Part shown: positions 39,161 to 55,965 of the stretch, one piece after another
Numbering within the stretch: position 1 is the first letter of the stretch
Layout of the letters: each line of letters starts with the position of its first letter
Assembly: GCF_024652905.1 (NCBI RefSeq)
Contig: NZ_CP102428.1
Location: 1,438,501-1,502,500 of the forward strand
Origin: Pseudomonas oryzihabitans
GTDB taxonomy: Bacteria > Pseudomonadota > Gammaproteobacteria > Pseudomonadales > Pseudomonadaceae
Reading direction: 5' to 3'
Length of the DNA: 64,000 bases
Made by a program: the position numbers and the translations under genes
The notes under the pieces: generated by a model
What the model was told of the DNA's origin: nothing
The model's input: only the letters and a program-made list of their open reading frames with translations
The model's database searches: none

Positions 39161-39256
39161 GGCAACCGAAAATGCCGCCGCCCCCAAGCAAAACAGCCGA
39201 TCGCGATGCCGGGGCCAGCAACTTCAGCGTTACCGACCCCAAGGCCTGCGTAGGCT
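39161..39256 (+). promoter_or_regulatory. Putative member E of the shared promoter architecture (gabT-like gene)
   Basis: GGCAACCGAAAATGCCG (39161-39177), AAAACAGCCGA (39190-39200) and a -10-like TAGGCT (39251-39256). AATGC lies 19 bp before the AAAAC element, exactly as in the strong copies, and AAAAC lies 61 bp before the -10 (62 in the others). The first element is 15/17 identical to 57553-57569, near the GNAT/ALDH divergent promoters. Confidence 0.4.
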
Positions 39257-40578: not shown

Positions 40579-40632
40579 GGTCAAACGTAACGCCGCCCGG
40601 CCCGGCTGTGGCAGCGCCAAGGGAATCCGACC

Positions 40633-41322
40633 ATGAGAATCACGCGTTACCAGGCCCTAGGCTTTTCCTGCTACGGCACCCTCGTCGACCGTGAAGGGGG
40701 CATCCTCGAAGCCCTGCGCCCCCTTGTGGCGCAGGCGGGCCTGAGCACCCATCCCGACTGGCTGCTCGGCAGCTACCACCGCCTGGCCCGCGAACTGCGC
40801 CAGGCGGCTCCCACTGCCAGCCAGACCAGCCTGCACCTGCGCATTCACCAGCGACTGGCGCAGGAGTTGCAACAGGAAGCCGACCTGGATGCCAGCGTGG
40901 CTTTTGGAAACGCCACGACGTGCTGGCCGGTGTTCGAGGATGCTCCGGGCGCGCTGCAGTACCTGAGCAAGTTCTATCGATTGGTGTTGCTGGCCTCGCC
41001 CGATGACGGCGAGGCGGCAGCGGTCACGGCGCGCTTGCCTGAGGTGTTCGCCGCCGTGATCCCCAACCGCGGTGGCGATCTGCGCCAGGCGTTGGACAAC
41101 ACCCTGGAAGAACTGGGCTTGGCGCGTGGGGATTTGCTGCCCATCAGAGGCAGTGAACCGGACGATCCCTGGAGTGCCCTGGTGGATTTTCCCCTGTGTA
41201 CCCTGCGCCGTGATCGCTCGCGGCCCTGGAACCTTTCGCGGCAGGCCCTGGATGGCACGCGGTGCGAGTACGCGAGTCTCGCCGACCTGGTGCATGCGCA
41301 CCAGACCGCCCTGCGTGCCTAG
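40633..41322 (+). CDS. HAD-superfamily protein lacking the catalytic nucleophile
   Basis: 229 aa with the layout of type II haloacid dehalogenase-like proteins. Motif I should read FDxYGTL; here it is LGFSCYGTLVD, so the nucleophilic Asp is Ser. Motif II is LLASPDDG, and the motif III Lys region (GGDLRQALDNTLEEL) has no obvious Lys. The frame is otherwise intact, so this is a pseudoenzyme candidate and not a decayed gene. It follows the GabT-like gene by 54 nt. The HAD at 55130-55801 keeps FDCYGTL, giving an in-window comparison. Confidence 0.75.
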   Translation: MRITRYQALGFSCYGTLVDREGGILEALRPLVAQAGLSTHPDWLLGSYHRLARELRQAAPTASQTSLHLRIHQRLAQELQQEADLDASVAFGNATTCWPVFEDAPGALQYLSKFYRLVLLASPDDGEAAAVTARLPEVFAAVIPNRGGDLRQALDNTLEELGLARGDLLPIRGSEPDDPWSALVDFPLCTLRRDRSRPWNLSRQALDGTRCEYASLADLVHAHQTALRA

Positions 41323-41351: not shown

Positions 41352-41843
41352 ATGGACGCCGCAACAAAACTGGATCGCATCGACATCAACATCCTGGTGC
41401 AGCTGCAGAAGGATGGCCGGATGACCAATGTCAGTCTCGCCGAAGCCGTGGGCCTCTCCCCCAGCCCCTGCCTGCAGCGGGTCAAGCGCCTGGAGGCGGC
41501 CGGCTACATCAGTGGCTACGAGGCCCACGTCAACCTCGCCAAGATCGCCAACTCGGTGACGGTGTTCACCGAGGTCACACTCTCCGACCACAAGCGCGCC
41601 GACTTCGTGAAGTTCGAGTCCTTTATCCGCGGGGTCGACGAGATCCTCGAATGCCACCTCATCAGTGGGGGCTACGACTACCTGCTGCGCTTCATGTGCA
41701 GCAGCATCGGTCACTACCAGGAATTGATGGAATCCATCCTCGACCGCAACGTCGGCATCGAGAAGTACTTCAGCTACATCGTCATCAAGTCGCCGGTGGT
41801 CAAGAACGCCCTGCCGCTGCGCAGCCTGATCAAGGCGGGCTAG
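41352..41843 (+). CDS. Lrp/AsnC-family transcriptional regulator
   Basis: 163 aa from the ATG at 41352 (GAGGAACGACG upstream). The N-terminal HTH contains LDRIDINILVQLQKDGRMTN and LAEAVGLSPSPCLQRVKRLE; the C-terminal RAM domain contains DEILECHLISGGYDYLLR. Lrp-type proteins sense amino acids and often control nearby amino-acid catabolic genes, so it is a candidate regulator of the surrounding island. It is in the same direction as gabD-gabT-HAD. Confidence 0.9.
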   Translation: MDAATKLDRIDINILVQLQKDGRMTNVSLAEAVGLSPSPCLQRVKRLEAAGYISGYEAHVNLAKIANSVTVFTEVTLSDHKRADFVKFESFIRGVDEILECHLISGGYDYLLRFMCSSIGHYQELMESILDRNVGIEKYFSYIVIKSPVVKNALPLRSLIKAG

Positions 41844-43785: not shown

Positions 43786-44937
43786 TTAGCCCAAGGCCAC
43801 TCGCAACCGTCCGAGCAGGGCATCACAGGCTTCCAGCTGGCTGATCTCGACGTACTCATCGGGCTTGTGCGCCTGTTCGATGCTGCCGGGCCCGCAGACC
43901 ACCACCGGGGTGTCCAGACGATTGGCGAAGAGGCCGCCCTCGGTGCCGAAGGCCACCTTGAGCTGTACCGTCCCCGGCTCGACCAGGGTCTGCATGAACC
44001 GCACGGCTTCCACACTGGGATGGGTATCCAGTCCGGGATAGGCGTTGACCGTCTCGATCTCGATGGCGGCCTTGGCTGACGTCTGCCGCGCCTCCCTGAC
44101 CAGGCGGTCCGCCATGTCCTGCAGCGTGGCCACCAAGCTCGCGGGATCGTCCGCCGGCAGGTGGCGGATCTCGAAATCCAGGGTGCAGCGATTGGGCACG
44201 ATGTTCAGCGCCTTGCCGCCGTCGATCCGGCCGACATGCAGGGTGGTGTAGGGAATGTCGTAGGCCGTATCCCTAGCGCCCTCTTCCGCCAGCCGACGCT
44301 GGCTGGCACGCAGGGCACCGACCAGATCGCTGGCCAGGTGGATGGCGTTGACGTGCAGCGGGGCGCGCGAAGAGTGCCCTTCCTGGCCTTGGCAGTGGGC
44401 GCGCAACGCCGCCTTGCCTTTGTGGCCAAGGGCGACCTGCATGTTCGTGGGTTCGCCGACGATGCAGAGGAAAGGCCGCACGGGAGCCAGTTCCAGCACA
44501 TCCAGCAGTCGCCGTACACCGACGCAACCAATCTCCTCGTCGTGGGAGAGCGCCAACTGCAGGGGTCGTTTCAGTGGTTCACCGCGAGCGGCGTCCAGCA
44601 GGGCCACCACCGCACAGGCGACGAAGCCCTTCATGTCGCAGGCACCTCGCCCGTAGATCCGGCCGTCCTGCAGGGTGCCGACGAAGGATGGCAAGGTCCA
44701 GGCCTGGCCTTCCACCGGCACCACATCGGTATGCCCGGACAGCAGCACCCCCGGTACGTCGGCAGGCCCCACGCTGGCGTAGAGATTGGCCTTGCGCCCG
44801 CTCTCGTCGAGCACCAGGCGGCAGGCGATGCCGGCGGCCTCCAGCAGCCCCTGCACATGCCTGATCAGCGCCAGGTTGGAGTCGGCGGAAACGGTGGGGA
44901 AGCCGATCAGGGTGCGCAGCAGATCCTGGCTGTTCAT
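43786..44937 (-). CDS. Acetylornithine deacetylase/ArgE-like M20 amidohydrolase
   Basis: 383 aa M20 metallopeptidase with LLSGHTDVVPVEG (metal His and catalytic Asp), YGRGACDMKG, DEEIGCVGVRR (catalytic and metal Glu) and GEPTNMQVALGHKG. Family members remove acyl groups from amino acids. It overlaps the FAD-oxidase gene by 4 nt and is the last gene of the eight-gene operon, so its role is probably to deacylate an imported N-acyl compound or opine derivative. The presence of ArgE-like motifs does not prove acetylornithine as substrate. Confidence 0.85.
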   Translation of the reverse strand: MNSQDLLRTLIGFPTVSADSNLALIRHVQGLLEAAGIACRLVLDESGRKANLYASVGPADVPGVLLSGHTDVVPVEGQAWTLPSFVGTLQDGRIYGRGACDMKGFVACAVVALLDAARGEPLKRPLQLALSHDEEIGCVGVRRLLDVLELAPVRPFLCIVGEPTNMQVALGHKGKAALRAHCQGQEGHSSRAPLHVNAIHLASDLVGALRASQRRLAEEGARDTAYDIPYTTLHVGRIDGGKALNIVPNRCTLDFEIRHLPADDPASLVATLQDMADRLVREARQTSAKAAIEIETVNAYPGLDTHPSVEAVRFMQTLVEPGTVQLKVAFGTEGGLFANRLDTPVVVCGPGSIEQAHKPDEYVEISQLEACDALLGRLRVALG

Positions 44938-46091
44938 CCGGCAAGGCTCTCCCGGCGCGGTTGCGCGAAACGGGCCACGTCGAAAGCCGCCAGGGGGGTG
45001 TCGGTATGGCCGGTGGCGATCAGCTCGGCCATGGTGTCCCCTACCCCCGGGCCGAGCTGGAAGCCGGCACCACAGAAACCGAAGGCGTAGTAGAGCCCCG
45101 GCAACTGGCTGCTGGGGCCCATGATCGGCAGGTCGTCGGCGATGTAGCCCTCGACCCCGCTCCAGGTGCGGATCACGTTGACCCTGGCCAGGGCCGGCGC
45201 CAGGCGCCGCAGCTGGGTGAGCTGATTGAGCAGGCCGTGGGGCTCGGCGCGGGCCAGACGGGTGTCCAGATCCGGGCGGGTGCGGAAGCAGCCGCCAAAG
45301 ATCACGTTGCCGCGCGGGATCTGGCGGAAATAGATGGTCTCGCTCACCAGCGGCGAAGACACGCCCACCGCTTCCTTGAAAGCATAGGGCAAGGGCTCGG
45401 TGACGCCCATCTGGGGACCATGGGTCTCGATGGGCACCGGCTCGCCGAACTGGCTCGACAGCCGACTGCCCCAGGCCCCGGCGGTGATCAGTAGCCGCGG
45501 CGCCCGATAGCGGCGGCCATCGGCGGCCTGCACCAGGAAATCGCCATCCGGCTTGGTGACCTGGGTGATCTCCACCCCTTCCTGCAGATTGACGCCCTCG
45601 CGCACCGCGGCGCGGGCAAAGGCCGGCGCGGCCAGGCGCGGATTGGCGTGACCATCGTGGGGCGCATAGGAGCCGGCCACCACCTCGGGGCCCAGGTAGG
45701 GAAACTTCTCGTGCAGGGCCGCGCCTTCGAGCACCTGCAGCTCCAGGGCGGCAGTCTCCGGCGCCCGGGCGTACTCGTGCAGCATGGCGATGCGACCAGG
45801 ATCGTAGACCACCCGCAGATGGCCACCGGGAATGAATTCCAGGTCATCGCCGATCAACTCGGGCAGGCGACCCCAGATACCGCGGGAACGGTTGGACAGC
45901 GCCACCTGGGTCAGGTAGCGACCCTGCCGGCGGACATTGCCGAAATTGGTGCCGCTGGCGAAGCGCCCGACCTGGTCACGCTCCAGCAGGAGCACCGATA
46001 GGCCCCGGCGCCGCAGGAAGAAGGCACTGGCGCTGCCCATGATGCCGGCGCCGACGACGATGACGTCCGCGCGGTTGGCGGTCTGGTTCAT
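44934..46091 (-). CDS. FAD-dependent amino-acid/opine oxidase subunit, HcnC/OoxB-like (DAO fold)
   Basis: 385 aa from the ATG at 46091. DAO-type FAD protein with an N-terminal dinucleotide motif VIVVGAGIMGSASAFFL and the SGTNFGNVRRQGRYLTQ substrate/FAD loop; the C-terminus has GFCGAGFQLGPGVGDTMAELI. It is the substrate-oxidising subunit of a three-part dehydrogenase with the [2Fe-2S] and FAD/NAD subunits encoded just upstream. Relatives include HcnC, OoxB and D-hydroxyproline dehydrogenase. It overlaps its neighbours by 4 nt on each side. Confidence 0.85.
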   Translation of the reverse strand: MNQTANRADVIVVGAGIMGSASAFFLRRRGLSVLLLERDQVGRFASGTNFGNVRRQGRYLTQVALSNRSRGIWGRLPELIGDDLEFIPGGHLRVVYDPGRIAMLHEYARAPETAALELQVLEGAALHEKFPYLGPEVVAGSYAPHDGHANPRLAAPAFARAAVREGVNLQEGVEITQVTKPDGDFLVQAADGRRYRAPRLLITAGAWGSRLSSQFGEPVPIETHGPQMGVTEPLPYAFKEAVGVSSPLVSETIYFRQIPRGNVIFGGCFRTRPDLDTRLARAEPHGLLNQLTQLRRLAPALARVNVIRTWSGVEGYIADDLPIMGPSSQLPGLYYAFGFCGAGFQLGPGVGDTMAELIATGHTDTPLAAFDVARFAQPRRESLAG

Positions 46092-47503
46092 GACGAAAGC
46101 TCCTCTTCGCTGGTGACGATGCCCAGCGGCAATGGCCGGACCGGTGCCTGGCCGCGCAGGCGGCCAACGGCCTCCACCGGCACCCCGGATTCGGCGGCGA
46201 TGATCTCGGCGCCGGCCTGGGCGCAATAGCGACCCTGGCAGCGACCCATGCCGACGCGGCTGAAGGCCTTGGCCCGATTGGCTTCCTGGGCGCCCTTCTC
46301 GCGCACCACGGCGCGCAATTCTCCGGCGGTGATGCCCTCGCAGCGGCAGACCACGGCGGTATCCGGCAGGCTGGCCATCTGTTTCGCGGGCCAGGGAAAG
46401 GCCTCGGCCAGGCCCAGGCGGAAGCGCTCCTGGACCGCTAGCGCCTCGCGGCAGCGCTCGGCGAGGCCATTGGGCGGGGTGCGACCGAGATCGCTCAGGA
46501 CCGCGCAGGCGGCCAGTTGCCCGGCCAGCTCGGCCCCGTCGGCGCCCCGGACCCGGGCGCCATCGCCGGCGGCATAGACCCCCGGCGTGGAGGTGCGGCC
46601 GTCGGCATCCAGTTGCAGCACCCACTGGCGGGTGGCGCGCTCGAATTCGAAGGCGCAGCGGGCGAGATCGCCCAGCTGGGTTTCCGGGCGCAGGTGATAG
46701 CCCAGGCCCACGGCGTCGCCCGCCACCTCCTGACGCAGGCCACGCGCATCGGCGAAGGCCACGCCGCGCACGCCCTGTTCGGCATCGCCGAGGATCTCCA
46801 GCGGGGTAACGCCAAAGTGCAGCGGCACCCCGGCGCGCCTGAGCGAGGCCATGAGTTGCACGCCCTTCCAGGCCACGCCCGGGCGGGCCAGCAGCTTGGG
46901 CGTAGCCTGGGCACGCAGGCGCAGTGGCGCCGTGTCGAGGACCGCGGCCACCGTGGCGCCGGCCTGCTGGTATTGGGCGGCGACCAGGTAGAGCAAGGGG
47001 CCGCTGCCCAGAAAGATCACCCGCCGGCCAATGGACACCGCCTGGGCCTTGAGGGCGATCTGGGCGCCGCCGAGGGTATAGGTGCCGGCCAGGTTCCAGC
47101 CCGGCACCGGCAGCAGGCGGTCACCGGCCCCGGTGCAGAGCACCAGGGCATCGAAATCCAGGGTGCGCTGGCGATTGCCCTGCACCGTGTAGAGGGTGCG
47201 CTCGTGCAGGTGCCAGGCCAGGGTGTCGGGCCGGTAGTCGAGGCGTCCGCGCAAGCCGTCGAAGGTGCGGTGCAGGCTTTCGGCCTTGCCCGCCTCGCTG
47301 CCGTAGAGGGTGGCATAGGGACGCTGAAAGCCCTCGGGCTGGCGCCGATAGATCTGGCCGCCGTCGCGGCGATTCTCGTCGATCACCACCGGGGTGAGAC
47401 CGGCGGCCAGCAGGGTTTCCGCGCAGCGCACGCCGGCCGGACCGGCCCCGACGATGACCACCTGCGGCGGGTTGCCGCCCGCCTTCGCTAGACCCGATTC
47501 CAT
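46088..47503 (-). CDS. FAD/NAD(P)-binding oxidase subunit with BFD-like Fe-S tail, HcnB/OoxA-like
   Basis: 471 aa from the ATG at 47503. N-terminal FAD motif VVIVGAGPAGVRCAETLL and DENRRDGGQIYRRQP; second nucleotide site near VIFLGSGPLLYLVA. The C-terminal tail has CRCEG and GRCQGRYC, a BFD-like [2Fe-2S] motif. It passes electrons from the DAO-fold subunit to the small ferredoxin-like subunit. The start overlaps the small-subunit gene by 16 nt. Confidence 0.85.
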   Translation of the reverse strand: MESGLAKAGGNPPQVVIVGAGPAGVRCAETLLAAGLTPVVIDENRRDGGQIYRRQPEGFQRPYATLYGSEAGKAESLHRTFDGLRGRLDYRPDTLAWHLHERTLYTVQGNRQRTLDFDALVLCTGAGDRLLPVPGWNLAGTYTLGGAQIALKAQAVSIGRRVIFLGSGPLLYLVAAQYQQAGATVAAVLDTAPLRLRAQATPKLLARPGVAWKGVQLMASLRRAGVPLHFGVTPLEILGDAEQGVRGVAFADARGLRQEVAGDAVGLGYHLRPETQLGDLARCAFEFERATRQWVLQLDADGRTSTPGVYAAGDGARVRGADGAELAGQLAACAVLSDLGRTPPNGLAERCREALAVQERFRLGLAEAFPWPAKQMASLPDTAVVCRCEGITAGELRAVVREKGAQEANRAKAFSRVGMGRCQGRYCAQAGAEIIAAESGVPVEAVGRLRGQAPVRPLPLGIVTSEEELSS

Positions 47504-47793
47504 ACCGCCTCCGGTTGCGTGGTGAGGATCTGCAGGCCTTCGCGGACCTCGGTGCCGCAGGCGCGCAGGCGCTCGCCCGCGGCGGTCCAGACCCAGCAAT
47601 CCTGGCAGGCGCCCATCAGGCAGAAGCCGGCGCGGCGCTCGTCGCCGAATTCGGACCGGCGCAGTGCCGGACCGTTGGCCAGCAAGGCGACCATCAGGGT
47701 GTCGCCGGCCAGCGCCGTGACCGGCAGGCCATCGACGCTGAGGCTGACCTGGGGCCGGCCGGTCTCGCCGAGTCGCTGGAAGCGGGAAGTCAT
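47488..47793 (-). CDS. [2Fe-2S] small oxidase subunit, HcnA-like
   Basis: 101 aa plant-type ferredoxin domain. Cys ligands: GFCLMGACQDCWV (C-x4-C-x2-C) and a later Cys in RLRACGTEV. It is the small subunit of HcnABC/OoxAB-type dehydrogenases. It overlaps the FAD subunit by 16 nt and the dual ATPase by 4 nt. Confidence 0.87.
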   Translation of the reverse strand: MTSRFQRLGETGRPQVSLSVDGLPVTALAGDTLMVALLANGPALRRSEFGDERRAGFCLMGACQDCWVWTAAGERLRACGTEVREGLQILTTQPEAVWNRV

Positions 47794-49634
47794 GCGCGAA
47801 CTCCTTGGGTGTGCAGCAGGGCGCCACCCTGCAGGCGCTGCAGGGTCTCGCCGTCATGATGACAGAGGATGCGGTTGCCCCCGGCGAGGGTCTGGGGCCG
47901 GGGCGGCACCCGGTCGCAACGGCCTTCGAGCCGTACCGGGCAGCGCTGCAGGAAGCTGCAGAGCCGACCGCTGGCGGGCGGCGACGAGACCAGGGGGACC
48001 GCCGTGCGGATGGGTTGCTCTTCCAGCCAGCCCTGGCGCAGCGTCGGTACCGAGGCGGTGAGCAATTCGGTGTAGGGGTGCAGCGGCGGATGCTGCAGGG
48101 TGGTCGGGGTGCCCAGTTCCACGGGCTGCCCGGCATAGAGCACCAGTACCTCGTCGCAAAGGCTGCGCACCGTGGAAATGTCGTGGCTGATGAACAGATA
48201 GGCCAGCCCCAGCTCACGGCGCAACTCGACGAGCAGGTCGAGAATGGCCGCGCCGACCACGGTATCCAGCGCCGAGGTGACCTCGTCACAGAGGATCAGC
48301 TCGGGTTCCGCGGCCAGGGCGCGTGCCAGGTTGACCCGCTGCTTCTGCCCGCCGGACAGCTCGCCCGGACGCCGGCTGGCGAGGCCGGCCGGCAGTTGTA
48401 CCCGGTCGAGCAATTCGCGGACCTTGCGCTGGCGGGTGGCCTTGTCGAAGGCGTGATAGGTCTCCAGCGGGCGCGTGAGGATGCGCTCCACGCTGTGCGC
48501 CGGATTGAGCGCCGTGTCGGCATTCTGATAGACCAGCTGCACCCGGCGGAATTGCTCGCGGGTGCGGCCTTCCAGGCCCGGTGGCAGCAGTTCGCCGCCC
48601 AGGCGCACGCTGCCCTGGGCCGGTGGCAGCAAGCCGGCGATGACCCGCGCCAGGGTCGACTTGCCCGAGCCGGATTCGCCGATCACCCCCAGGGCCTGGC
48701 CAGCGGCAATGCGCAGATCGATACCCTCCAGCACCCGGTAACGTGGCAGGCCATCGGCGCCGCTGGGGCCATAGCCGGCCACCAGGTCCTTCACTTCCAG
48801 TACCGGCGCCGCAGTCTCGACCGTGGGCAGGCCACGCTCCGTCAGGGGCTCCGGCCGGGCCGCCGCCAGCAGGCTGCGGGTATAGGGATGGCGGGCGCTG
48901 GCCAGCAGCCGTTCGGTGCGGCGGTTCTCATAGACCTCGCCGCCGTTGAGCACCAGGATGCGATCGGCCATCTGCGCCACCACCGCCAGGTCGTGGGAGA
49001 CGTAGATGGCGGTCACGCCCCGCTCGCGGACCACCTGCTTGAACACCCGCAGCACCTCGATCTGGGTGGTCACGTCCAGCGCCGTGGTGGGTTCGTCGAG
49101 GATCACCAGGGTCGGATCGGTGATCAGCGCCATGGCCGCCATCAGCCGCTGCAATTGACCGCCCGAGACCTGGTGCGGATAGCGCTGACCGATGTGCTCG
49201 GGATCCGGCAGCGCCAGCTCCCTGAACAGTTGCAGCGCCCGCGCTTCGGCTTCCTGGCGCGTCAGTACACCATGGATCAGGGCGCTCTCGATGATCTGTT
49301 CCATCAGGCGCCGCGACGGGTTGAAGGCCGCCGCGGCGCTCTGGGCGATATAGGCCACGGTGCGACCGCGCAGGCGGCGCAGGCCAGCGGCGTCCAGCTC
49401 CAGCACCTGGGTATCGCCGACGCGGATCGAGCCGCCGGCCAGTCGGCAACCCTCACGGGCATAACCGAGCAGCGACAGGGCGATGGTGGTCTTGCCCGAG
49501 CCGGACTCGCCGATCAGCGCCAGCACCTCGCCCTTGGCCAGGTTGAAGCCGACGTCCTTGACGATGGGGGTTTCGCTGCCGTCGTCGCCCTGGGCGACCA
49601 CGCGCAGGTCCTTGACCTCTACCAGCAATTCCAT
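47790..49634 (-). CDS. Dual-domain peptide/opine-type ABC transporter ATP-binding protein
   Basis: 614 aa, two fused ABC domains (DppD plus DppF in one chain, as in GsiA/YejF). Walker A: GESGSGKTT (about residue 42) and GESGSGKST (about 325). Signatures: VSGGQLQR and LSGGQKQR. Walker B: LVILDEPTTALD and LILCDEVTSALD. The C-terminus carries a Cys-rich stretch (CSFLQRCPVRLEGRC). It energises the two permeases encoded 1-2 nt upstream. Confidence 0.92.
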   Translation of the reverse strand: MELLVEVKDLRVVAQGDDGSETPIVKDVGFNLAKGEVLALIGESGSGKTTIALSLLGYAREGCRLAGGSIRVGDTQVLELDAAGLRRLRGRTVAYIAQSAAAAFNPSRRLMEQIIESALIHGVLTRQEAEARALQLFRELALPDPEHIGQRYPHQVSGGQLQRLMAAMALITDPTLVILDEPTTALDVTTQIEVLRVFKQVVRERGVTAIYVSHDLAVVAQMADRILVLNGGEVYENRRTERLLASARHPYTRSLLAAARPEPLTERGLPTVETAAPVLEVKDLVAGYGPSGADGLPRYRVLEGIDLRIAAGQALGVIGESGSGKSTLARVIAGLLPPAQGSVRLGGELLPPGLEGRTREQFRRVQLVYQNADTALNPAHSVERILTRPLETYHAFDKATRQRKVRELLDRVQLPAGLASRRPGELSGGQKQRVNLARALAAEPELILCDEVTSALDTVVGAAILDLLVELRRELGLAYLFISHDISTVRSLCDEVLVLYAGQPVELGTPTTLQHPPLHPYTELLTASVPTLRQGWLEEQPIRTAVPLVSSPPASGRLCSFLQRCPVRLEGRCDRVPPRPQTLAGGNRILCHHDGETLQRLQGGALLHTQGVRA

Positions 49635-49635
49635 C

Positions 49636-50538
49636 TCAGCGCCCTCCCCGGCGTCGCGCGCCGAACCGGTCGATGAGCAGGTTGACGCCCACGGTCAGGG
49701 TGCCGATGGCCAGCGCCGGCATCAGCACCGCCGGGGCGCCGTCGGCCAGACCACCGATGTTTTCCCGCACCAGGGAGCCCAGGTCGGCGTTGGGCGGCTG
49801 CACGCCGAGACCAAGAAAGCTCATGCCACTGAGCAGCAGCACGATATAGACGAATCTCAGGCCCAGGTCGGTGAGCAGCGGCAGGCGCATGTTGGGCAGC
49901 ATCTCGCGCAGGGCGATATACAGCCGGCCCTCGCCACGGGTGCGGGCGACCTGGACGTATTCCAGCTCGATGAGATTCATCGCCAGGCTGCGGGCGATCC
50001 GATAGCAGCCGGGGGCATAACCCACCACCGCCATGACGATCAGCAAGGGCACCGAGGAGCCGAAGGCCGAGACCATCACCAGCGCCAGCATCTTGCTCGG
50101 CAGGGAGATCAGCGCATCGATCAATCGCGACAGCGGCTCGTCCACCCAGCGCCCGGACAGCGCCGCGAGCAGACCGAGACCGGTGCCGAGCACGCAGGCC
50201 AGCACGGCCGCGATCAAGGCCAGACCCACGGTGAAGCGGGCACCGTCGAGGATGCGGCTGAGCACATCACGGCCCAGGTAATCGGTGCCCAGCGGATGGG
50301 CGGCGCTGTAGCCGGCCAGCACCGCGCTGTCGCCCAGGGCGCCTGGGTCATAGGGCGCGAGCCAGGCGCCGAACGCGGCGAGGAATAGCCAGAAGGCCAC
50401 CAGGATGCCACCGAGCAGTCCGGTCAGTGACCAACGCGCGCGGCGACGAGTGCGCGGCGGCGACAGCTGGGCATCGAGCGTCTTGCCGTCCACCGGCAGG
50501 ACGGACGCGGCACGTACGGGAGTCACGGGTCGGGTCAT
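49636..50538 (-). CDS. Peptide/opine-type ABC transporter permease, DppC-like
   Basis: 300 aa from the ATG at 50538. HPLGTDYLGRDVLSRILDGARF is the DppC/OppC signature, and the EAA loop lies near LEYVQVARTRGEGR. The N-terminal cytoplasmic segment is rich in Arg (RTRRRARWS). It overlaps the partner permease by 4 nt and forms the inner-membrane channel with it. Confidence 0.92.
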   Translation of the reverse strand: MTRPVTPVRAASVLPVDGKTLDAQLSPPRTRRRARWSLTGLLGGILVAFWLFLAAFGAWLAPYDPGALGDSAVLAGYSAAHPLGTDYLGRDVLSRILDGARFTVGLALIAAVLACVLGTGLGLLAALSGRWVDEPLSRLIDALISLPSKMLALVMVSAFGSSVPLLIVMAVVGYAPGCYRIARSLAMNLIELEYVQVARTRGEGRLYIALREMLPNMRLPLLTDLGLRFVYIVLLLSGMSFLGLGVQPPNADLGSLVRENIGGLADGAPAVLMPALAIGTLTVGVNLLIDRFGARRRGGR

Positions 50539-51491
50539 AGCGTTCTCAGCCTCGGATTGGACAGGATGGCGCAGAGATCCGCCAGGGTCATGAGCACCAG
50601 GTAGGCGCAGCAGAACAGCATGGCGCAGGCCTGGATCAGCGGCAGGTCGCGACTGGCGACGCCGTCCACCATCAGCTGGGCGATGCCCGGGTAGTTGAAG
50701 ATGGTCTCGACGATCACCACCCCGCCCATCAGGTAGGAAAGACTCAGGGCGATGGAGTTGGCGATGGGCCCCACGGCGTTGGGCAAGGCATGGCGCAGCA
50801 CGGCGCGCACCGGACCGACGCCCTTGAGCCGGGCCATCTCCACATAGGGACTCTGCAGCTGCTCCACCAGGGCCGCCCGAGTCATGCGCGCCATCTGCGC
50901 CACGATCACGCAGCACAGGGTGCCCACCGGCAAGGCATAGGCACGCAGGAAGTCCAGGGGGCCGGCGATGTCGTGGGCGAAGGTCAGCGCCGAGGTCCAT
51001 TGCAGGTGCACGGCGAACACCAGCACCGCCAGAGTCGCCACCAGGAATTCCGGTACCGCGACGATGCCCAGGGTGAAGACGTTGAGCGCCCGGTCCAGCC
51101 GCCCGCCGGCGTTCATCGCCGAGGCGATGCCCAGGCCGAGCGCCAGGGGCACCGACACCAGGGCGGTGACGCCGGCCAGCATCAGCGAGCCGCCCAGCCG
51201 GTCACCGATCATCGTGGCGATGGGCATCTGGCTGGCCAGGGACTGGCCGAGATCGCCGTGCAGCAGGCCGCTCAGCCAGTGGAAGTAGCGCAGCAGCGCA
51301 GGCTGGTCGAGGCCCATCTGGGCGCGCAGCGCCGCGACCTGCTCGGGCAGCGCGAACTGGCCCAGGGCCTGCTGCGCGGCATCGCCCGGCAACAGCGCCG
51401 AGACGAAGAACACCAGCAACGAGACGATGAGCAGGGTCAGCAACCCGCCCCCGAGGCGTCTGGCGATGAGGGAAAACACGGAAAGGTCCAA
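50535..51491 (-). CDS. Peptide/opine-type ABC transporter permease, DppB-like
   Basis: 318 aa, starting at TTG 51491. That codon follows AGGAGG with a 5-nt gap and gives MDLSVFSLIARRLGG, the normal DppB N-terminus; upstream in-frame starts (to 51557) lack a ribosome site and run through the intercistronic hairpin. The TM1 region is LLTLLIVSLLVFFVSALLPG, and the motif MARLKGVGPVRAVLRHALPN is the EAA loop. A GTG at 51479 is a less likely alternative. Confidence 0.9.
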   Translation of the reverse strand: MDLSVFSLIARRLGGGLLTLLIVSLLVFFVSALLPGDAAQQALGQFALPEQVAALRAQMGLDQPALLRYFHWLSGLLHGDLGQSLASQMPIATMIGDRLGGSLMLAGVTALVSVPLALGLGIASAMNAGGRLDRALNVFTLGIVAVPEFLVATLAVLVFAVHLQWTSALTFAHDIAGPLDFLRAYALPVGTLCCVIVAQMARMTRAALVEQLQSPYVEMARLKGVGPVRAVLRHALPNAVGPIANSIALSLSYLMGGVVIVETIFNYPGIAQLMVDGVASRDLPLIQACAMLFCCAYLVLMTLADLCAILSNPRLRTL

Positions 51492-51517
51492 AGCCACCTC
51501 CTGCTTGAGCGTGGAGT

Positions 51518-51548
51518 GGCGAGTCCTGTCCTTGCGGACCGACTCGCC
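51518..51548. other. Intercistronic hairpin between SBP and permease genes (second operon)
   Basis: GGCGAGTC (51518-51525) pairs with GACTCGCC (51541-51548), and an inner GTCC-TTGC-GGAC extends the stem. It lies between the binding-protein stop (51564) and the permease start (51491), the same relative position as the hairpin at 3101-3121. Likely role: protecting the SBP mRNA or lowering downstream expression. Confidence 0.6.
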
Positions 51549-51563
51549 GTCAGGCACCGGGCG

Positions 51564-53201
51564 TCAGGCCTCCAGCCAGACGTGTTCGGCGAACATGTAG
51601 CCCATGAAGCCCCCGATGGGGATGATTCCGTAGCCGCCGAGCTTGGGCGAATGGGCATCGATGGAACTGGTGAAGATCGGCAAGCCGATGCCGGCGTGCT
51701 GGTGGATCAGCAACTGCATGTCGGCGTACATCTGCTTGCGCTTGGCCAGGTCGGTCTCGCCACGGGAAGCCACCAGCAACTGGTCGAATTGCTCGTTCTT
51801 CCAGCCCGATTCGTTCCAGGGTGCATCGGACTTGAAGAACTGCGATAGCAGGATGTTGGCGGTGGGTCGGGCGTTGATGTTGCCGAAACCCAGCGGATCC
51901 TTCATCCAGTGGTTGTCCCAGTAGCCGTCGGCACTGACCCGGTTGACCATCAGGTTGAGCCCGGCCTGGCGTGCCGATTGCTGCAGCACCAGGGCCATCT
52001 CGTTGGCGTTGTCGGCGGCGGTGGAGGTCACCAGCGGCATCCGCGCACCGGCGATCCCGGCTTTCTGGAAGAGGAACTTGGCCTTGTCCGGATCATAGGG
52101 CCGTTGCGGCAGGTCCGCGGCGTGATAGGGAGTGCCGGGCATGATCGGCTGGTCGTTGCCGATGGTGCCGTAGCCCAGAAACACCGACTTGAGGATCTGC
52201 TCGCGGTCGAACAGCAGCTTCATCCCCTCGACCACATTGGGATCGTTGAACGGCCGATTGGGGATGCGCATGATCAGATCGGTGTAGCCACCCGAGGTGT
52301 TGGCCACGATCTTGAGTTTGCCGCTCTGCTTGAGGCGGTCGGCGGAGCGCGGATCCACCGAGACGGTCAGCTGGACGTCACCGGCCAGCAGCGCATTGAC
52401 CCGCGAGGGTTCGTCGCCGATGCCGATCAGCTCGATCTCGTCCAGATAGGGCTTGCCGGACTTCCAGTAGTTTTCGTTGCGCGTGCCCACGGTGCGCACC
52501 CCCGGCTTGAATTCCTTGACCTTGAAGGGGCCGGTGCCGTTGGCGGTGGAGAAGTCCTTGGTGCCATCGGCGATGATCAGGAACGGCGAGATGGCCAGTA
52601 CCGCGGGCAGCTCGGAATTCGGTGACACCAGGCGGATACGCACCTCGTCGGGCGACACCGCGGTGATCTCGGCGAACTGGTCGGCCAGCGCCTTGACCTT
52701 GGAGCCCACCGCCGGGTCCTTGTGGCGCAGCAGCGAGTAGACGACGTCGGCGCTGTCGAAGGTCTTGCCGTTATGGAACTGCACACCCTGGCGCAGCTTG
52801 ATCGTCCAGGTCAGGGCATCCTGGGTGTCGAAGCTGGTGGCCAGGGCCATCTGCGGCTCCAGATGGCTGTCGAACACGGTCAGGCCGTTGTAGAAAAAGT
52901 AGTGGCGCGCGTAGTCACCGGAAAAGGCGCCACGGGCCGGGTCGAGGGTATCGGCGGTGGACGAACCCGCCGCCGCGGCGCGCACCCGACCGCCGCGACG
53001 CGGGGTGCCGGTGACCGCATCTTCTGCAGCGAAGGCCTGACCATCACGGCCGAGCAGACTGCCCACGCCGGTCGCCAGCAGCCCGGCGGCGCCGAGCAGG
53101 CGGAGCGCATCGCGCCGCGAGACACCCCGCTGCAGGGCCTCGAAGGCACGCACGCTTTCAGCAGCACCTATCAGGGGACTTCCAGTCTTTTTCTCGGTCA
53201 T
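51564..53201 (-). CDS. Peptide/opine-type ABC transporter substrate-binding protein (SBP_bac_5)
   Basis: 545 aa from the ATG at 53201. The N-terminus has a twin-arginine export motif (VSRRDALRLLGAAG) with a hydrophobic segment ending AQAFAAE, so it is probably Tat-exported to the periplasm. The family 5 region appears as VQFHNGKTFDSADVVYSLLRHKD. It is first gene of the eight-gene operon and delivers the ligand to the importer. The long N-terminal lead before the RR pair (about 30 residues) is typical of Tat-type members. Confidence 0.9.
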   Translation of the reverse strand: MTEKKTGSPLIGAAESVRAFEALQRGVSRRDALRLLGAAGLLATGVGSLLGRDGQAFAAEDAVTGTPRRGGRVRAAAAGSSTADTLDPARGAFSGDYARHYFFYNGLTVFDSHLEPQMALATSFDTQDALTWTIKLRQGVQFHNGKTFDSADVVYSLLRHKDPAVGSKVKALADQFAEITAVSPDEVRIRLVSPNSELPAVLAISPFLIIADGTKDFSTANGTGPFKVKEFKPGVRTVGTRNENYWKSGKPYLDEIELIGIGDEPSRVNALLAGDVQLTVSVDPRSADRLKQSGKLKIVANTSGGYTDLIMRIPNRPFNDPNVVEGMKLLFDREQILKSVFLGYGTIGNDQPIMPGTPYHAADLPQRPYDPDKAKFLFQKAGIAGARMPLVTSTAADNANEMALVLQQSARQAGLNLMVNRVSADGYWDNHWMKDPLGFGNINARPTANILLSQFFKSDAPWNESGWKNEQFDQLLVASRGETDLAKRKQMYADMQLLIHQHAGIGLPIFTSSIDAHSPKLGGYGIIPIGGFMGYMFAEHVWLEA

Positions 53202-53652
53202 GTCGGCTCGCTCGTTGGGGGCTCTGTCACCAGCGCCGCGATCCCCTCCCCGGGCCTGCGGCACTGTCCTCGTGGCCGCCGTGTCGCACGGCCTGGTTCA
53301 TTACAGCACCGGCCCTTCGTCGAATACGGTCGAATTGAGCAGGCGACGAGACAGAAAAGACCGTTTTGGCCAAGCCGCTCAGCATTGTTTGCGGTGTGCG
53401 TCGCCACAGCGCAACGGGGCTGCCCATGCCCGGGTTTGGCGCGCTGCCAGCCGTCTCGCTGGCCAGCGGAGCGGCGTTTCCGACCAGGTACAAGATGCGA
53501 ACGCCGACCCTCGCAGCAGCTTTCACCCCGGCCACCTGCCTGGCACAGGGGAAAATGCCAAACCGCCCGTTGGCCTGCAGAAACGACAAAACGCCCGCCT
53601 TGACGCTGCGGTTGGTTGGCAGGTCCGGGCGCGCGGTTCGTTGCTCAGGATC
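53202..53652. other. Long intergenic leader region, no gene seen
   Basis: About 450 bp between the SBP start and the MITE-like element. It contains the strong shared promoter (53299-53394). If the -10-like element is right, transcription starts near 53292 and the leader is about 90 nt. The stretch 53400-53652 has overlapping weak open frames on both strands with no ribosome site or recognisable product, so I call no gene. Confidence 0.6.
53299..53394 (-). promoter_or_regulatory. Promoter A: conserved three-block architecture, importer/oxidase operon
   Basis: Read on the minus strand: CCGCAAACAATGCTG (53394 to 53380), then the block AAAACGG-N4-TTCTGTCTC (53367 to 53348), then GCTGTAATG (53307 to 53299), in which TGTAAT is a good -10. 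All three blocks recur at 55865-55960 with identical spacings. The first block contains the dyad GCA-N5-TGC; the second is centred on an AAAAC-N-GTTTT-like dyad (one mismatch here). Activator-binding sites upstream of a promoter without a clear -35 are the likely meaning. Confidence 0.7.
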
Positions 53653-53812
53653 TAGGTTCTGTACGAAAAGTCGACGAGCGAAGGTCAGGCGAGGCGAAAA
53701 AGGCTGAGGAAGCGGAGTTTACGAGCGGTAAATGAGCATTCCGACCGGCTGGCGATCCAGGCCTTTTTCAACGAAGCATCACCGAGCGCAGGCACTTTTC
53801 GTACAGAACCTA
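53653..53812. mobile_element. MITE-like element with 19-bp perfect terminal inverted repeats
   Basis: TAGGTTCTGTACGAAAAGT (53653-53671) is repeated exactly in reverse complement at 53794-53812. The element is 160 bp, too short to encode a transposase. Both ends carry CTAG (53652-53655 and 53810-53813), so the target duplication is TA or CTAG, as in IS5/IS427-type insertions. The right end coincides with the TAG stop of the PuuB-like gene. It is probably a non-autonomous derivative mobilised by an IS elsewhere in the genome. Confidence 0.85.
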
Positions 53813-55102
53813 GTGCAGGCGATCCTGGACCCGGTAATACAACCCCACCAGCGGCAGGAACCAGGGCTTGCCGAAGTGGCCGGGGATGGCCGGCCAGTCC
53901 AGCACCCGCCAGGGGTTGGACTGGCTGCGCCCTTCCAGCACCTCGGCCATCACCCGGCCCATGTGCACCGCCATCTGCACGCCGTGGCCGCTGTAGCCCA
54001 TGGCATAGAACAGGCCGTCCTGCTCGCCGGCGCGGGGCAGGCGGTCGGCGGTCATGTCCACCAGCCCGCCCCAGCAATAGTCGATGGGCGTCTGGGCCAG
54101 GCTGGGAAACAGCTGCCCCAGGGCGGCGCGCAACACGGCGCCGCTCTTGGCGTCCTGGCGTGGATCGGACAGCGCGAAGCGCGCCCGACCGCCAAAGATC
54201 AACCGGTGGTCCGGGGTGGTGCGGAAATAGTTGCCGATGATGCGGCTGGTAACATAGGTGCGGCGGTTGGGCAGCAGCTCGTCCAGCTGCGCCTTGGGCA
54301 GCGGCGCGGTGGCGATGATGAAGCTGCCTACCGAGGCGATGCGCCGCCGAAACCACTGGAAGGGGCCGACCCGGGCATTGCCCGTCGCCACCAGCACCTG
54401 GCGGGCGCGCAGCTCGCCCTTGGCGCTGATCACGCGAAAGCTGCCATCGGGCAGCCGCTGCAGATCGCTGACCGCCGCGCCTTCGTAGACCTGGGCGCCA
54501 CGCCGGACCACCGCCTCCGCCAGGCCCACGCCGAACCGCCCCATGTGCATCTGGGCGCCATTGCGCTGTAGCAGACCACCGTGGAAACCATCGGAGGCCA
54601 CCTCGATCCGCACTTGGGCGGCGTTGAGCAGCTCCACGTCCGGGTCCACCTCCCGGCGGATCAGCTCGCAGGTACGTGCCAGGTTGTCATAGTGCTGCGG
54701 CTTGGCCGCCAACTTGAGTTTGCCGGCCTTGTGGAAATCGCAGTCGATACCCTCCTCGGCGATCACCGCCTCCACGCTGGCCACCGCATCGGCATAGGCC
54801 TGGTAGAAGGCCCGCGCGCGCTCGGCACCCAGGCTGGCGTGCAGCGCCGCGTAGTCCTGGGCGACGCCGGTGTTGCAGTGGCCACCGTTGCGCCCGGAGG
54901 CTTCGCCGATCACCCGTCCGGCCTCCAGCACGGCCACGCTGGCACCGCGCCGGCGCAGGGCCACCGCCGCGGAGAGCCCGGTGAAGCCGCCGCCGATGAC
55001 GGCGACATCCACCTCGCCCGCCACCGGCCCCGGGGTGGCCCCGGTAAAGCCCGGCGCGGTCGCCAGCCAGTAGGAATCGGACGATGCTGGGCCAAGACTC
55101 AT
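53810..55102 (-). CDS. FAD-dependent amine oxidase, gamma-glutamylputrescine oxidase (PuuB)-like
   Basis: 430 aa DAO-fold oxidoreductase. N-terminal FAD motif VAVIGGGFTGLSAAVALRRRGASVAVLEA, then GEASGRNGGHCNTGVAQDY, the segment typical of PuuB/OrdL-type enzymes. The C-terminus has YCWGGLVDMTADRLPR and YAMGYSGHGVQMAVHMG. It likely oxidises a gamma-glutamyl amine or similar secondary amine to an aldehyde. It lies 27 nt after the HAD gene, so the two are one operon. Its TAG stop is the end of the MITE-like element; the CTAG target leaves the stop intact, so the protein is probably full length. Confidence 0.87.
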   Translation of the reverse strand: MSLGPASSDSYWLATAPGFTGATPGPVAGEVDVAVIGGGFTGLSAAVALRRRGASVAVLEAGRVIGEASGRNGGHCNTGVAQDYAALHASLGAERARAFYQAYADAVASVEAVIAEEGIDCDFHKAGKLKLAAKPQHYDNLARTCELIRREVDPDVELLNAAQVRIEVASDGFHGGLLQRNGAQMHMGRFGVGLAEAVVRRGAQVYEGAAVSDLQRLPDGSFRVISAKGELRARQVLVATGNARVGPFQWFRRRIASVGSFIIATAPLPKAQLDELLPNRRTYVTSRIIGNYFRTTPDHRLIFGGRARFALSDPRQDAKSGAVLRAALGQLFPSLAQTPIDYCWGGLVDMTADRLPRAGEQDGLFYAMGYSGHGVQMAVHMGRVMAEVLEGRSQSNPWRVLDWPAIPGHFGKPWFLPLVGLYYRVQDRLH

Positions 55103-55129
55103 GGGCGGGCGCTCCGGCAGTTCAGGGTG

Positions 55130-55801
55130 TTATTCGAGACCGACCACAGCGGCCAGGCCGCCGATGTCCTTGATCTCGGTGTTGCGGTAGAACGGCGTGC
55201 TCGGCTCGTGGCCACGATTCACGAATACCTTGTTCTGGATGTTCATGTAGTCGGCCGGGATGAGGTCGTAGCGAAAGCTCGACGACACATGCAGCACGTC
55301 TTCCGGACCGCAGCCGAGGTTGTCCAGCATGTATTCGAAGGCCTGCAGGCGCGGCTTGTAGGCCTGGCCCTGCTCGGCGGTGAAGACCCGGTGGAAGGGC
55401 ACGCCCAGCTTGTCGACGTTGGACATGATCTGCTCGTCGGCGGCGTTGGAATAGATCACCAGCGGGATCTTGTCAGCGATCTTGGCCAGGCCCGCGGTCA
55501 CGTCCGGATGCGGCCCCCAGCTCGGCACCGCCTCGTAGTAGGCATTGGCCTCGGCGTCGGTGAAGGAGATGCCCCAGCGCTTGCAGGTGCGCTCCACTGC
55601 CGCGTACAGCACCTCCGAATATGGCTTCCAGGCGCCAAGCACCTCGTCGAAGCGATAGCCGTTGAAATCCTTACAGAACTGGTCCATCGCCTCAGCTGGA
55701 ATGCGGTCGGCGAACATCTCGCGGGCCATGTCGGACATGCGGAAACGGGTCAGGGTACCGTAGCAGTCGAAGGTGATGTACTTGGGCCGAAAGGCGGTCA
55801 T
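55130..55801 (-). CDS. Haloacid dehalogenase type II-like HAD hydrolase
   Basis: 223 aa from the ATG at 55801. Motif I is intact (YITFDCYGTLTRF, nucleophile Asp), motif II is VIYSNAADEQ, and the motif III Lys lies in GQAYKPRLQAFEYML, with the acidic end in HVSSSFRYDLIPA. The length matches 2-haloacid dehalogenase relatives. Substrate may be a phosphate ester or halo-acid; nothing in the sequence decides. It heads the two-gene operon with the PuuB-like oxidase. Confidence 0.87.
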   Translation of the reverse strand: MTAFRPKYITFDCYGTLTRFRMSDMAREMFADRIPAEAMDQFCKDFNGYRFDEVLGAWKPYSEVLYAAVERTCKRWGISFTDAEANAYYEAVPSWGPHPDVTAGLAKIADKIPLVIYSNAADEQIMSNVDKLGVPFHRVFTAEQGQAYKPRLQAFEYMLDNLGCGPEDVLHVSSSFRYDLIPADYMNIQNKVFVNRGHEPSTPFYRNTEIKDIGGLAAVVGLE

Positions 55802-55864
55802 GGCAAGGGTCCTTTGACGAGGGTCGGGAGTGAAGGCCGGGACATTGTTGGCGTCCCTGGCACG

Positions 55865-55960
55865 CATTACAGCATCGGTGGGCCTGACAGTTGTCCGCTT
55901 TCAGGCGACGTGGGAGACAGAAAAAACCGTTTTAGCGGTAGGGCCCAGCATTGTTTGCGG
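55865..55960 (-). promoter_or_regulatory. Promoter B: conserved three-block architecture, HAD-PuuB operon
   Basis: Minus strand: CCGCAAACAATGCTG (55960 to 55946), AAAACGG-N4-TTCTGTCTC (55933 to 55914) and GCTGTAATG (55873 to 55865). The first block is identical to promoter A over 15 bp, the second differs at one base in 20 and the third is identical over 9 bp. Spacings (32 and 49 bp between the fixed points) are the same in both, while the DNA between blocks has diverged. The AAAAC-N-GTTTT dyad is perfect here (55923-55933). The outermost block ends 5 bp from the upstream dehydrogenase stop. Confidence 0.7.
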
Positions 55961-55965
55961 CAGCC

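What the first reader, a model, noticed from the sequence alone, without database searches (positions are those of the whole stretch)
53299..55960. Two operon promoters share three sequence blocks at identical spacing
Upstream of the importer/oxidase operon (53299-53394) and of the HAD-PuuB operon (55865-55960), three blocks recur in the same order: CCGCAAACAATGCTG (15/15 identical), AAAACGG-N4-TTCTGTCTC (19/20) and GCTGTAATG (9/9, containing TGTAAT). The spacings are identical (32 and 49 bp between the fixed points), yet the DNA between blocks is not conserved. That pattern argues for selection on a two-site activator promoter and not for a recent duplication. It links an opine/peptide-type importer plus oxidase operon to a PuuB-like oxidase plus HAD operon in one regulon. 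No family I know has exactly this site; the regulator could be the Lrp-type protein at 41352 or one encoded elsewhere.
Basis: seen in the sequence. Interest (0 to 1): 0.75.

Follow-up and report, generated by a model that had tools for sequence, protein, structure and literature searches.

The report
Shared Lrp-type promoter of catabolic operons
Two neighbouring Pseudomonas operons for importing and breaking down an unknown nitrogen compound carry the same control region, whose parts and spacing are kept in many related bacteria and which is probably switched by a nearby Lrp-family regulator.

Summary
In detail: three blocks (15/15, 19/20, 10/10) at identical gaps (12 and 40 bp), with no further copy in the 5.2-Mb genome at up to 3 mismatches. 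The pair occurs in 10 of 13 genus genomes (P. oryzihabitans group), the same 10 that have the importer. A profile of the element hits 32 of 34 named Pseudomonas loci given to it (the two misses lack the upstream DNA) and, more weakly, Kushneria, Caballeronia and Azoarcus-type loci; of 60 hits checked, 51 precede a HAD1-type gene. Elsewhere HAD, oxidase and importer are mostly one tight operon; this group has a second promoter inside it. The profiled promoters have an extended -10 and no -35, as in activator-dependent promoters. The best regulator candidate is the Lrp-type protein at 41352: among 119 family genomes it occurs in all 15 with a strong site and in 1 of 104 others; in three other genomes it is present though at least 66 kb away; block 1 fits the E. 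coli Lrp consensus 12/15; a related element precedes the Lrp gene's own operon. Binding and activation are inferred, not shown. The substrate is unknown; azetidine-ring (nicotianamine-like) compounds are a speculative guess.

The parts
53299..53394 (-). P_SBP: promoter of the importer/oxidase operon; block 1 53380-53394, block 2 53348-53367, extended -10 TGCTGTAATG 53299-53308
   Evidence: profile R1, 65.7 bits; 10 of 13 genus genomes
55865..55960 (-). P_HAD: promoter of the HAD-oxidase operon; block 1 55946-55960, block 2 55914-55933, extended -10 55865-55874
   Evidence: 58.7 bits; orthologous element in other Pseudomonas
55130..55801 (-). HAD1, HAD type II hydrolase; nearest solved relatives are 8hp5-8hp7 (deposited as (S)-2-haloacid dehalogenase) and 3smv (deposited under that name and as L-azetidine-2-carboxylate hydrolase)
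53810..55102 (-). PuuB/AmaA-like FAD (DAO) oxidase
51564..53201 (-). Opp/Nik-family substrate-binding protein (SBP), first gene behind P_SBP
43786..51557 (-). two permeases, fused ATPase, two-subunit opine/sarcosine-oxidase-like enzyme, ArgE-like deacetylase: rest of the importer/oxidase operon
41352..41843 (+). Lrp/AsnC-family regulator P0002, proposed regulator of both promoters
39289..41322 (+). GabT-like aminotransferase (39289-40578) and second HAD (40633-41322), upstream of and probably co-transcribed with the Lrp gene
39165..39209 (+). candidate related site upstream of the aminotransferase-HAD2-Lrp operon (CCGAAAATGCCG...AAAACAGCCGATC); weak score, core conserved in relatives
   Evidence: E 3.1; -1.3 bits
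42677..42733 (-). candidate partial site (block 2 and the part below it, no block 1) upstream of the cupin gene
   Evidence: E 0.025

Best explanation
The two elements are activator-dependent sigma-70-type promoters of one local regulon, controlled by the Lrp-family protein encoded at 41352-41843. Shown by sequence: an extended -10 (TGnTGTAAT) without a -35, and upstream blocks at about -95 and -68 (in most profiled relatives also about -37) at fixed spacing, kept over large evolutionary distance upstream of the same genes. Inferred: Lrp oligomers bind the half-site-bearing blocks about 26-31 bp apart, wrap the DNA, and in response to a pathway metabolite recruit RNA polymerase to the -35-less promoter. 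In most relatives one such promoter precedes HAD-oxidase-importer as a single tight gene row; the P. oryzihabitans group has a second copy between oxidase and importer, so both halves can answer the same signal.
For: Two sites per genome in 10 of 13 genus genomes, the 10 with the SBP gene. Of 50 places preselected on blocks 1+2 in named relatives (14 of them in the genus), 48 have TGTAAT 41 or 42 bp after block 2, a part not used in that selection. Profile R1: 61 hits in 66 of the 80 fetched loci; of 60 examined, 51 precede a HAD1-type gene, 7 a DAO-type oxidase gene, 2 the SBP gene (20 of the 60 are R1 training rows). No -35 above 3/6 matches in any of 26 profiled promoters; TGnTGTAAT in 26 of 26 (these rows were picked from places that had TGTAAT). 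Regulator: P0002 is 99-100% identical in the 10 operon-bearing genus genomes, with only 41-42% paralogues in the other 3; in 119 family genomes all 15 with a strong site (E below 1e-6) have an orthologue against 1 of 104 others (Fisher 4e-18, not corrected for kinship), and that one (G024) has a weak site (E 0.01 in a 213-kb search) before a HAD gene. Of 50 SBP-bearing genomes reached by name, all 36 with an R1 hit have Lrp, against 10 of 14 without. In three of them Lrp lies on another contig, at least 66, 101 and 164 kb from the site by contig ends, reckoned by hand. Block 1 fits the Lrp consensus 12/15, a level reached by 11 of 127,972 strand-positions in the window, 4 of them block 1 itself. 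In the 18-kb G091 cluster the recognised genes leave no gap for another regulator. An AAAACA(G/A) core precedes the aminotransferase-HAD2-Lrp operon in 14 of 15 and 21 of 21 aligned regions; in 3 of 5 Caballeronia/Paraburkholderia regions GCAnAAAATGC and AAAACG stand there 25 bp apart, the spacing of blocks 1 and 2.
Against: No binding, expression or TSS data. Co-occurrence is inflated by shared ancestry, and Lrp is usually in the same cluster. Block 2 matches the Lrp consensus only 9-10 of 15. Ten of the 50 named genomes have Lrp without an R1 hit near these genes (L085, L099, L104, L105, L106, L108, L109, L113, L122, L129; the held DNA of L085 and L122 lacks the upstream region). In Caballeronia/Paraburkholderia the R1 hits end before the -10 and no TGTAAT stands there. 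The site before the Lrp operon scores weakly in the window, its pattern was written after seeing the alignment, and 9 of the 14 further aminotransferase upstream regions not in those counts show no paired element of this kind by a loose pattern, 2 of them have only the block-1-like part. The third upstream element of relatives is degenerate here. Two genomes (G014, G113) have weak site hits (E 0.003-0.004) without Lrp; near the hits only a distant ABC-ATPase match was found in one. The 119-genome profile search used strict filters that lose weak sites.
Confidence: 0.72

Rival explanations
1. The promoters are a real co-regulated pair, but the activator is another protein (LysR, AraC/GlxA, GntR or a global factor such as IHF), encoded elsewhere; Lrp merely travels with the cluster.
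For: Blocks at -68 and -95 also suit LysR or AraC-type activators by position (general knowledge). Block 2 contains AAAC-N4-GTTT in many relatives, not a typical Lrp site. Ten of 50 named genomes carry Lrp without an R1 hit near these genes.
Against: No other regulator was recognised in the 18-kb G091 cluster (by gene matches and reading, not by a scan for DNA-binding domains); a LysR-like ORF was seen only beside the G024 cluster among the gaps read. The second Lrp paralogue (49%) was found in 2 of 13 genus genomes, so it cannot serve all. Site and Lrp co-occur also where unlinked.
Confidence: 0.22
2. The second promoter is a simple, functionally neutral duplication of the first, and similarity reflects recent copying.
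For: Both copies share letters (TTTTCTGTCTC in the window) not seen in the nearest outgroups L057/L058; among the 66 loci given to R1 only L056 (of the group) and L060 have a hit before the SBP gene.
Against: Spacer identity equals the permuted null; blocks are kept in 10 genomes while flanks diverged. The PuuB-SBP gap is at most 169 bp in 57 of 58 measured loci outside the group, and the one expanded gap (L060, 458 bp) also carries a site, so promoter and gap expansion go together.
Confidence: 0.04
3. The blocks are part of a conserved RNA leader or other non-promoter element.
For: Strong conservation in a gap behind ALDH1 that read-through could transcribe.
Against: Blocks 1-2 lie upstream of a conserved extended -10 and precede different genes (HAD, oxidase, SBP) at similar distance. 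Rfam was not searched.
Confidence: 0.02

Closest known systems
E. coli Lrp regulon (consensus yAGhAwATTwTdCTr, as quoted in PMC5554404, one passage seen)
   Same: Regulator has the same domains (HTH_AsnC, AsnC ligand-binding) and E. coli Lrp as best solved match; block 1 matches 12/15; several sites in phase upstream.
   Different: Regulon seems local to one catabolic cluster, not global (2 profile hits in the whole own genome); block 2 is a poor match; spacing is rigid over large evolutionary distance.
AsnC/DoeX of ectoine catabolism (PMC5924519, passages seen)
   Same: Lrp-type gene inside a catabolic cluster with an aminotransferase and a succinate-semialdehyde-dehydrogenase gene; the review says asnC mutants of Ruegeria pomeroyi showed an activating role and that DoeX of Halomonas elongata binds the proposed regulatory region in preliminary studies.
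   Different: The clusters here hold HAD enzymes, DAO oxidases and an Opp-type importer; ectoine genes were not searched for and no DoeX sequence was compared.
Gamma-glutamylputrescine (puu/pau) catabolism regulons
   Different: Different regulator families there (recalled); oxidase and dehydrogenase score far below the curated cut-offs of the models listed.

Membership tests
Lrp/AsnC regulator (P0002) | AsnC-type HTH plus Lrp/AsnC ligand-binding domain | tested here: met
   Pfam HTH_24, AsnC_trans_reg, HTH_AsnC-type above cut-offs; best PDB match E. coli Lrp 2gqq, 5.6e-35
Lrp-controlled promoter | Match to Lrp consensus in the promoter | tested here: inconclusive
   Block 1 12/15; block 2 9-10/15
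Lrp-controlled promoter | Regulator present wherever the element is clearly present | tested here: met
   15 of 15 strong-site family genomes; 36 of 36 named genomes with an R1 hit; two genomes with weak hits lack it
Lrp-controlled promoter | Regulator binds and controls the promoter | not testable with these tools
   needs DNA-binding and expression assays
Activator-dependent extended -10 promoter | TGn + TATAAT-like -10, no -35 | tested here: met
   TGnTGTAAT in 26 of 26 rows (picked among places with TGTAAT); best -35 match 3/6 or less; no classical sigma-70 pair found in 53100-56000. Not met in the Caballeronia/Paraburkholderia versions
Activator-dependent extended -10 promoter | Transcription start just below the -10 | not testable with these tools
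   needs TSS mapping
Sigma-54 promoter | TGGCm-N5-7-TTGC | tested here: not met
   0 of 26

The most novel reading that the evidence does not exclude
The regulon is a dedicated Lrp-controlled pathway, found in beta- and gammaproteobacteria, that imports and dismantles azetidine-ring, opine-like plant metallophores (nicotianamine or phytosiderophores): an Opp/Nik/opine-family importer takes them up, two flavin oxidases cut the C-N bonds, HAD enzymes related to L-azetidine-2-carboxylate hydrolase open the ring, and GabT- and SSADH-like enzymes feed the product into malate. The same promoter module is re-used when the operon is split.
Probability: 0.2. Interest if true: 0.75.

Novelty: new member of a known kind. 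Interest (0 to 1): 0.5.

Why it matters
It gives a rigidly spaced, widely conserved control element for an import-and-oxidation cluster on which I found no paper, plus a regulator candidate, so binding can be tested directly with two ready-made promoters. The element also marks members of an unknown catabolic pathway, many in plant-associated bacteria. If the substrate guess holds, it would supply genes for phytosiderophore breakdown: one paper (PMC7786132, passages seen) infers such breakdown by P. fluorescens SBW25 and names a few iron-regulated candidate genes of other kinds, still to be validated. Whether SBW25 has this cluster was not checked.

Tried and rejected
Chance similarity: rejected. 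Recent duplication with alignable spacers: no signal. Sigma-54 and classical -35/-10 promoters: no match. A third full site in the window: R1 gave only two hits at E up to 10 with default filters; unfiltered over 36000-64000 it gave the partial cupin site (E 0.025) and four weaker ones (E 0.68-8.4), one of them the site before the aminotransferase. The second Lrp paralogue as regulator: too rare. Pantoea and Marinomonas: no R1 hit; read by eye, Marinomonas shows TGTTGTAAT and an AATACCG block, Pantoea has little room between ALDH1 and HAD1 and no element was seen. Literature: no paper on this cluster or site came up in searches of the held open-access library; the ectoine review (search 83), the SBW25 paper and the azetidine paper PMC8016842 were seen in passages (81 and 88; 82). 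ORF clustering for unknown regulators was swamped by antisense ORFs and not used. L054 was disregarded in the cupin alignment because its start was misplaced. One R1 hit of 61 (L105, minus strand, E 0.11) was left out of the 60 counted; 14 of the 80 fetched loci were not given to R1, and 30 of the 80 were not among the handles. Of 50 aminotransferase upstream regions extracted, 36 were counted and the other 14 looked at. R1 and the weight matrix were both trained on alignment A1 (26 rows that I picked from the 50 places, none of the two without TGTAAT), so hits in those rows are not independent.
Full report
What is there. On the minus strand, upstream of the SBP gene (ATG at 53201) and of the HAD gene (ATG at 55801), the same three blocks recur: CCGCAAACAATGCTG, AAAACGG-N4-TTCTGTCTC and TGCTGTAATG, with gaps of 12 and 40 bp in both copies. 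The genome (5.22 Mb) holds no other copy of blocks 1+2 with up to 3 mismatches, and the reversed control none. The spacers are unrelated: 28% identity against 27.5% in a permuted null.

Conservation in the genus. Of 13 genomes, 10 have exactly two copies, 3 have none; the same 10 have the SBP gene. Across the 20 promoters block 3 is identical and blocks 1 and 2 nearly so, while the two promoter types share little more than chance between blocks. With this strict pattern no genome outside the genus matched among 398 of the family, which at first looked like a clade-limited element; in fact the layout is wider and the letters change.

Conservation beyond. A scan of named genomes with the SBP gave 80 loci, the best of 107: the P. 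oryzihabitans group, other Pseudomonas, Litchfieldella, Kushneria, Caballeronia, Azoarcus-type and others. In most other Pseudomonas loci the order HAD-oxidase-SBP-permeases-ATPase-oxidase subunits-ArgE is unbroken or nearly so; the oxidase-SBP gap is 13-169 bp in 57 of 58 measured loci outside the group, against 422-484 bp in 7 of 7 loci of the group. With a relaxed pattern the layout GCAAAgtcTGCTG-N12-AAAACGG...TTTnT...TGnTGTAAT appears upstream of HAD1; of 50 preselected places 48 have TGTAAT at 41 or 42 bp after block 2. A profile from 26 promoters (R1) gave 61 hits over 66 of the 80 loci; of 60 examined, 51 lie upstream of a HAD1-type gene, 7 upstream of a DAO-type oxidase gene and 2 upstream of the SBP gene; 20 of the 60 are training rows. 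32 of 34 named Pseudomonas loci had a hit, and the two misses lack the upstream DNA. Weaker hits in Kushneria, Caballeronia, Paraburkholderia, Rhodoferax, Azoarcus, Aromatoleum, Denitromonas and Litchfieldella sit in the same place, and alignments within those groups, read by eye, show their own conserved versions; in Caballeronia/Paraburkholderia the -10 is not recognisable. L060 (P. lactucae) also has an expanded gap with a site before the SBP gene, so the internal promoter may have arisen more than once.

Promoter anatomy. All 26 profiled promoters have TGnTGTAAT (they were picked among places with TGTAAT) and none has better than 3 of 6 matches to a -35; a simple scan finds no classical sigma-70 promoter in the region and the sigma-54 pattern is absent. 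Taking the start as about 7 bp below the -10 (inference), the blocks centre at about -95 and -68, and most profiled relatives have a third element (TTTTAACGnCATnTGC) at about -44 to -29, degenerate here. In some relatives foreign DNA lies directly 5' of block 1 (for example L007, L014, L017, compared by eye with the window's MITE-like repeat), which suggests that the element needs nothing further upstream.

Regulator. The Lrp/AsnC-type protein at 41352-41843 is 99-100% identical in the 10 operon-bearing genus genomes, and only 41-42% paralogues were found in the other 3. In 119 family genomes, strong sites (E below 1e-6) occur in 15 and Lrp orthologues (76-100% identity) in 16, the same 15 plus G024. 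Two further genomes, G014 and G113, have weak site hits (E 0.003-0.004) without Lrp; no gene of this cluster but a distant ABC-ATPase match was found beside them. The profile search over that many genomes used strict filters. G024 has a weak site (E 0.01 in a smaller search) just before a different HAD gene. In 50 SBP-bearing genomes reached by name, 46 have Lrp: all 36 with an R1 hit and 10 of 14 without; the four lacking Lrp have distant SBPs (39-42%). In L058, L075 and L080 the regulator sits on another contig, at least 164, 66 and 101 kb away by contig ends. Block 1 matches the E. coli Lrp consensus (as printed in PMC5554404) at 12 of 15; 11 of 127,972 strand-positions in the window reach that, four of them the two blocks read on both strands. 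The aminotransferase-HAD2-Lrp operon is itself preceded by a related element: an AAAACA(G/A) core in 14 of 15 and 21 of 21 aligned regions, with a block-1-like part at the same distance in some. Of the 14 upstream regions outside that count, 3 of 5 Caballeronia/Paraburkholderia ones show GCAnAAAATGC and AAAACG exactly 25 bp apart, as blocks 1 and 2 are, the other 2 only the first part, and the remaining 9 no such pair. In the window this site is 39165-39209, weak on its own. The cupin gene beside Lrp has a partial site conserved in L050, L051, L055 and L056.

Mechanism. Rigid spacing, missing -35, upstream position and the known behaviour of Lrp-type proteins make activation by a DNA-wrapping Lrp oligomer the most likely reading; a close precedent is AsnC of ectoine catabolism, with an activating role in Ruegeria pomeroyi (PMC5924519, passages). 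Binding, direction of control and inducer are inferred.

Pathway. HAD1 and HAD2 are nearest to a small solved subgroup that includes L-azetidine-2-carboxylate hydrolase 3smv (HAD1 73-80 bits, HAD2 78-86); for HAD1 epoxide and cis-epoxysuccinate hydrolases follow at 35-39 bits and other haloacid dehalogenases at 22-33. The top entries of that subgroup are deposited as (S)-2-haloacid dehalogenase, so the chemistry is open. Beside them stand a GabT-like aminotransferase and an aldehyde dehydrogenase (an SSADH-like role is inferred); in Aspergillus azetidine-2-carboxylate is assimilated through such a hydrolase and the GABA route (PMC8016842, passages). With an Opp/Nik/opine-type importer and amine oxidases this suggests an N-substituted azetidine such as nicotianamine. 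This is inference from families; other substrates fit nearly as well.

Noticed in passing
window 53652-53813: MITE-like element of about 160 bp with inverted ends CTAGGTTCTGTACGAAAAGT/ACTTTTCGTACAGAACCTAG between the oxidase stop codon and P_SBP; the distance between the two promoters is 2566 and 2576 bp in two genomes and 2376-2440 bp in the other eight, so it is probably absent there; similar sequences in 22 plasmid records, 21 of Pseudomonas and one of Halomonas.
   Followed up: partly
L007, L014, L017 (upstream of block 1): A sequence resembling one end of the same MITE lies directly upstream of P_HAD in three genomes of the group (by eye).
   Followed up: no
window 40633-41322: Second HAD protein of the azetidine-hydrolase-like subgroup, beside the aminotransferase and Lrp genes in most loci viewed; about 28-34% identical to its counterpart in most other Pseudomonas, far more diverged than Lrp.
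   Followed up: no
window 41352-41843: The Lrp protein is 99-100% identical across 10 genomes whose SBP is 89-98% identical to the window's, unusually strong constraint for a local regulator.
   Followed up: no
L175 2814-3521; L208, L209, L211 further HAD genes: Another HAD gene with tandem elements upstream (in L208/L209/L211 AAAACCGTAGGTTATGC or similar and, about 31 bp on, AAAACGGAATATTTC or similar), perhaps a variant of the same control element.
   Followed up: partly
window 55865-55960 downstream half: P_HAD carries a GCCTGA...TCAGGC inverted repeat between block 2 and the -10 in several genomes of the group (by eye); meaning unknown.
   Followed up: no
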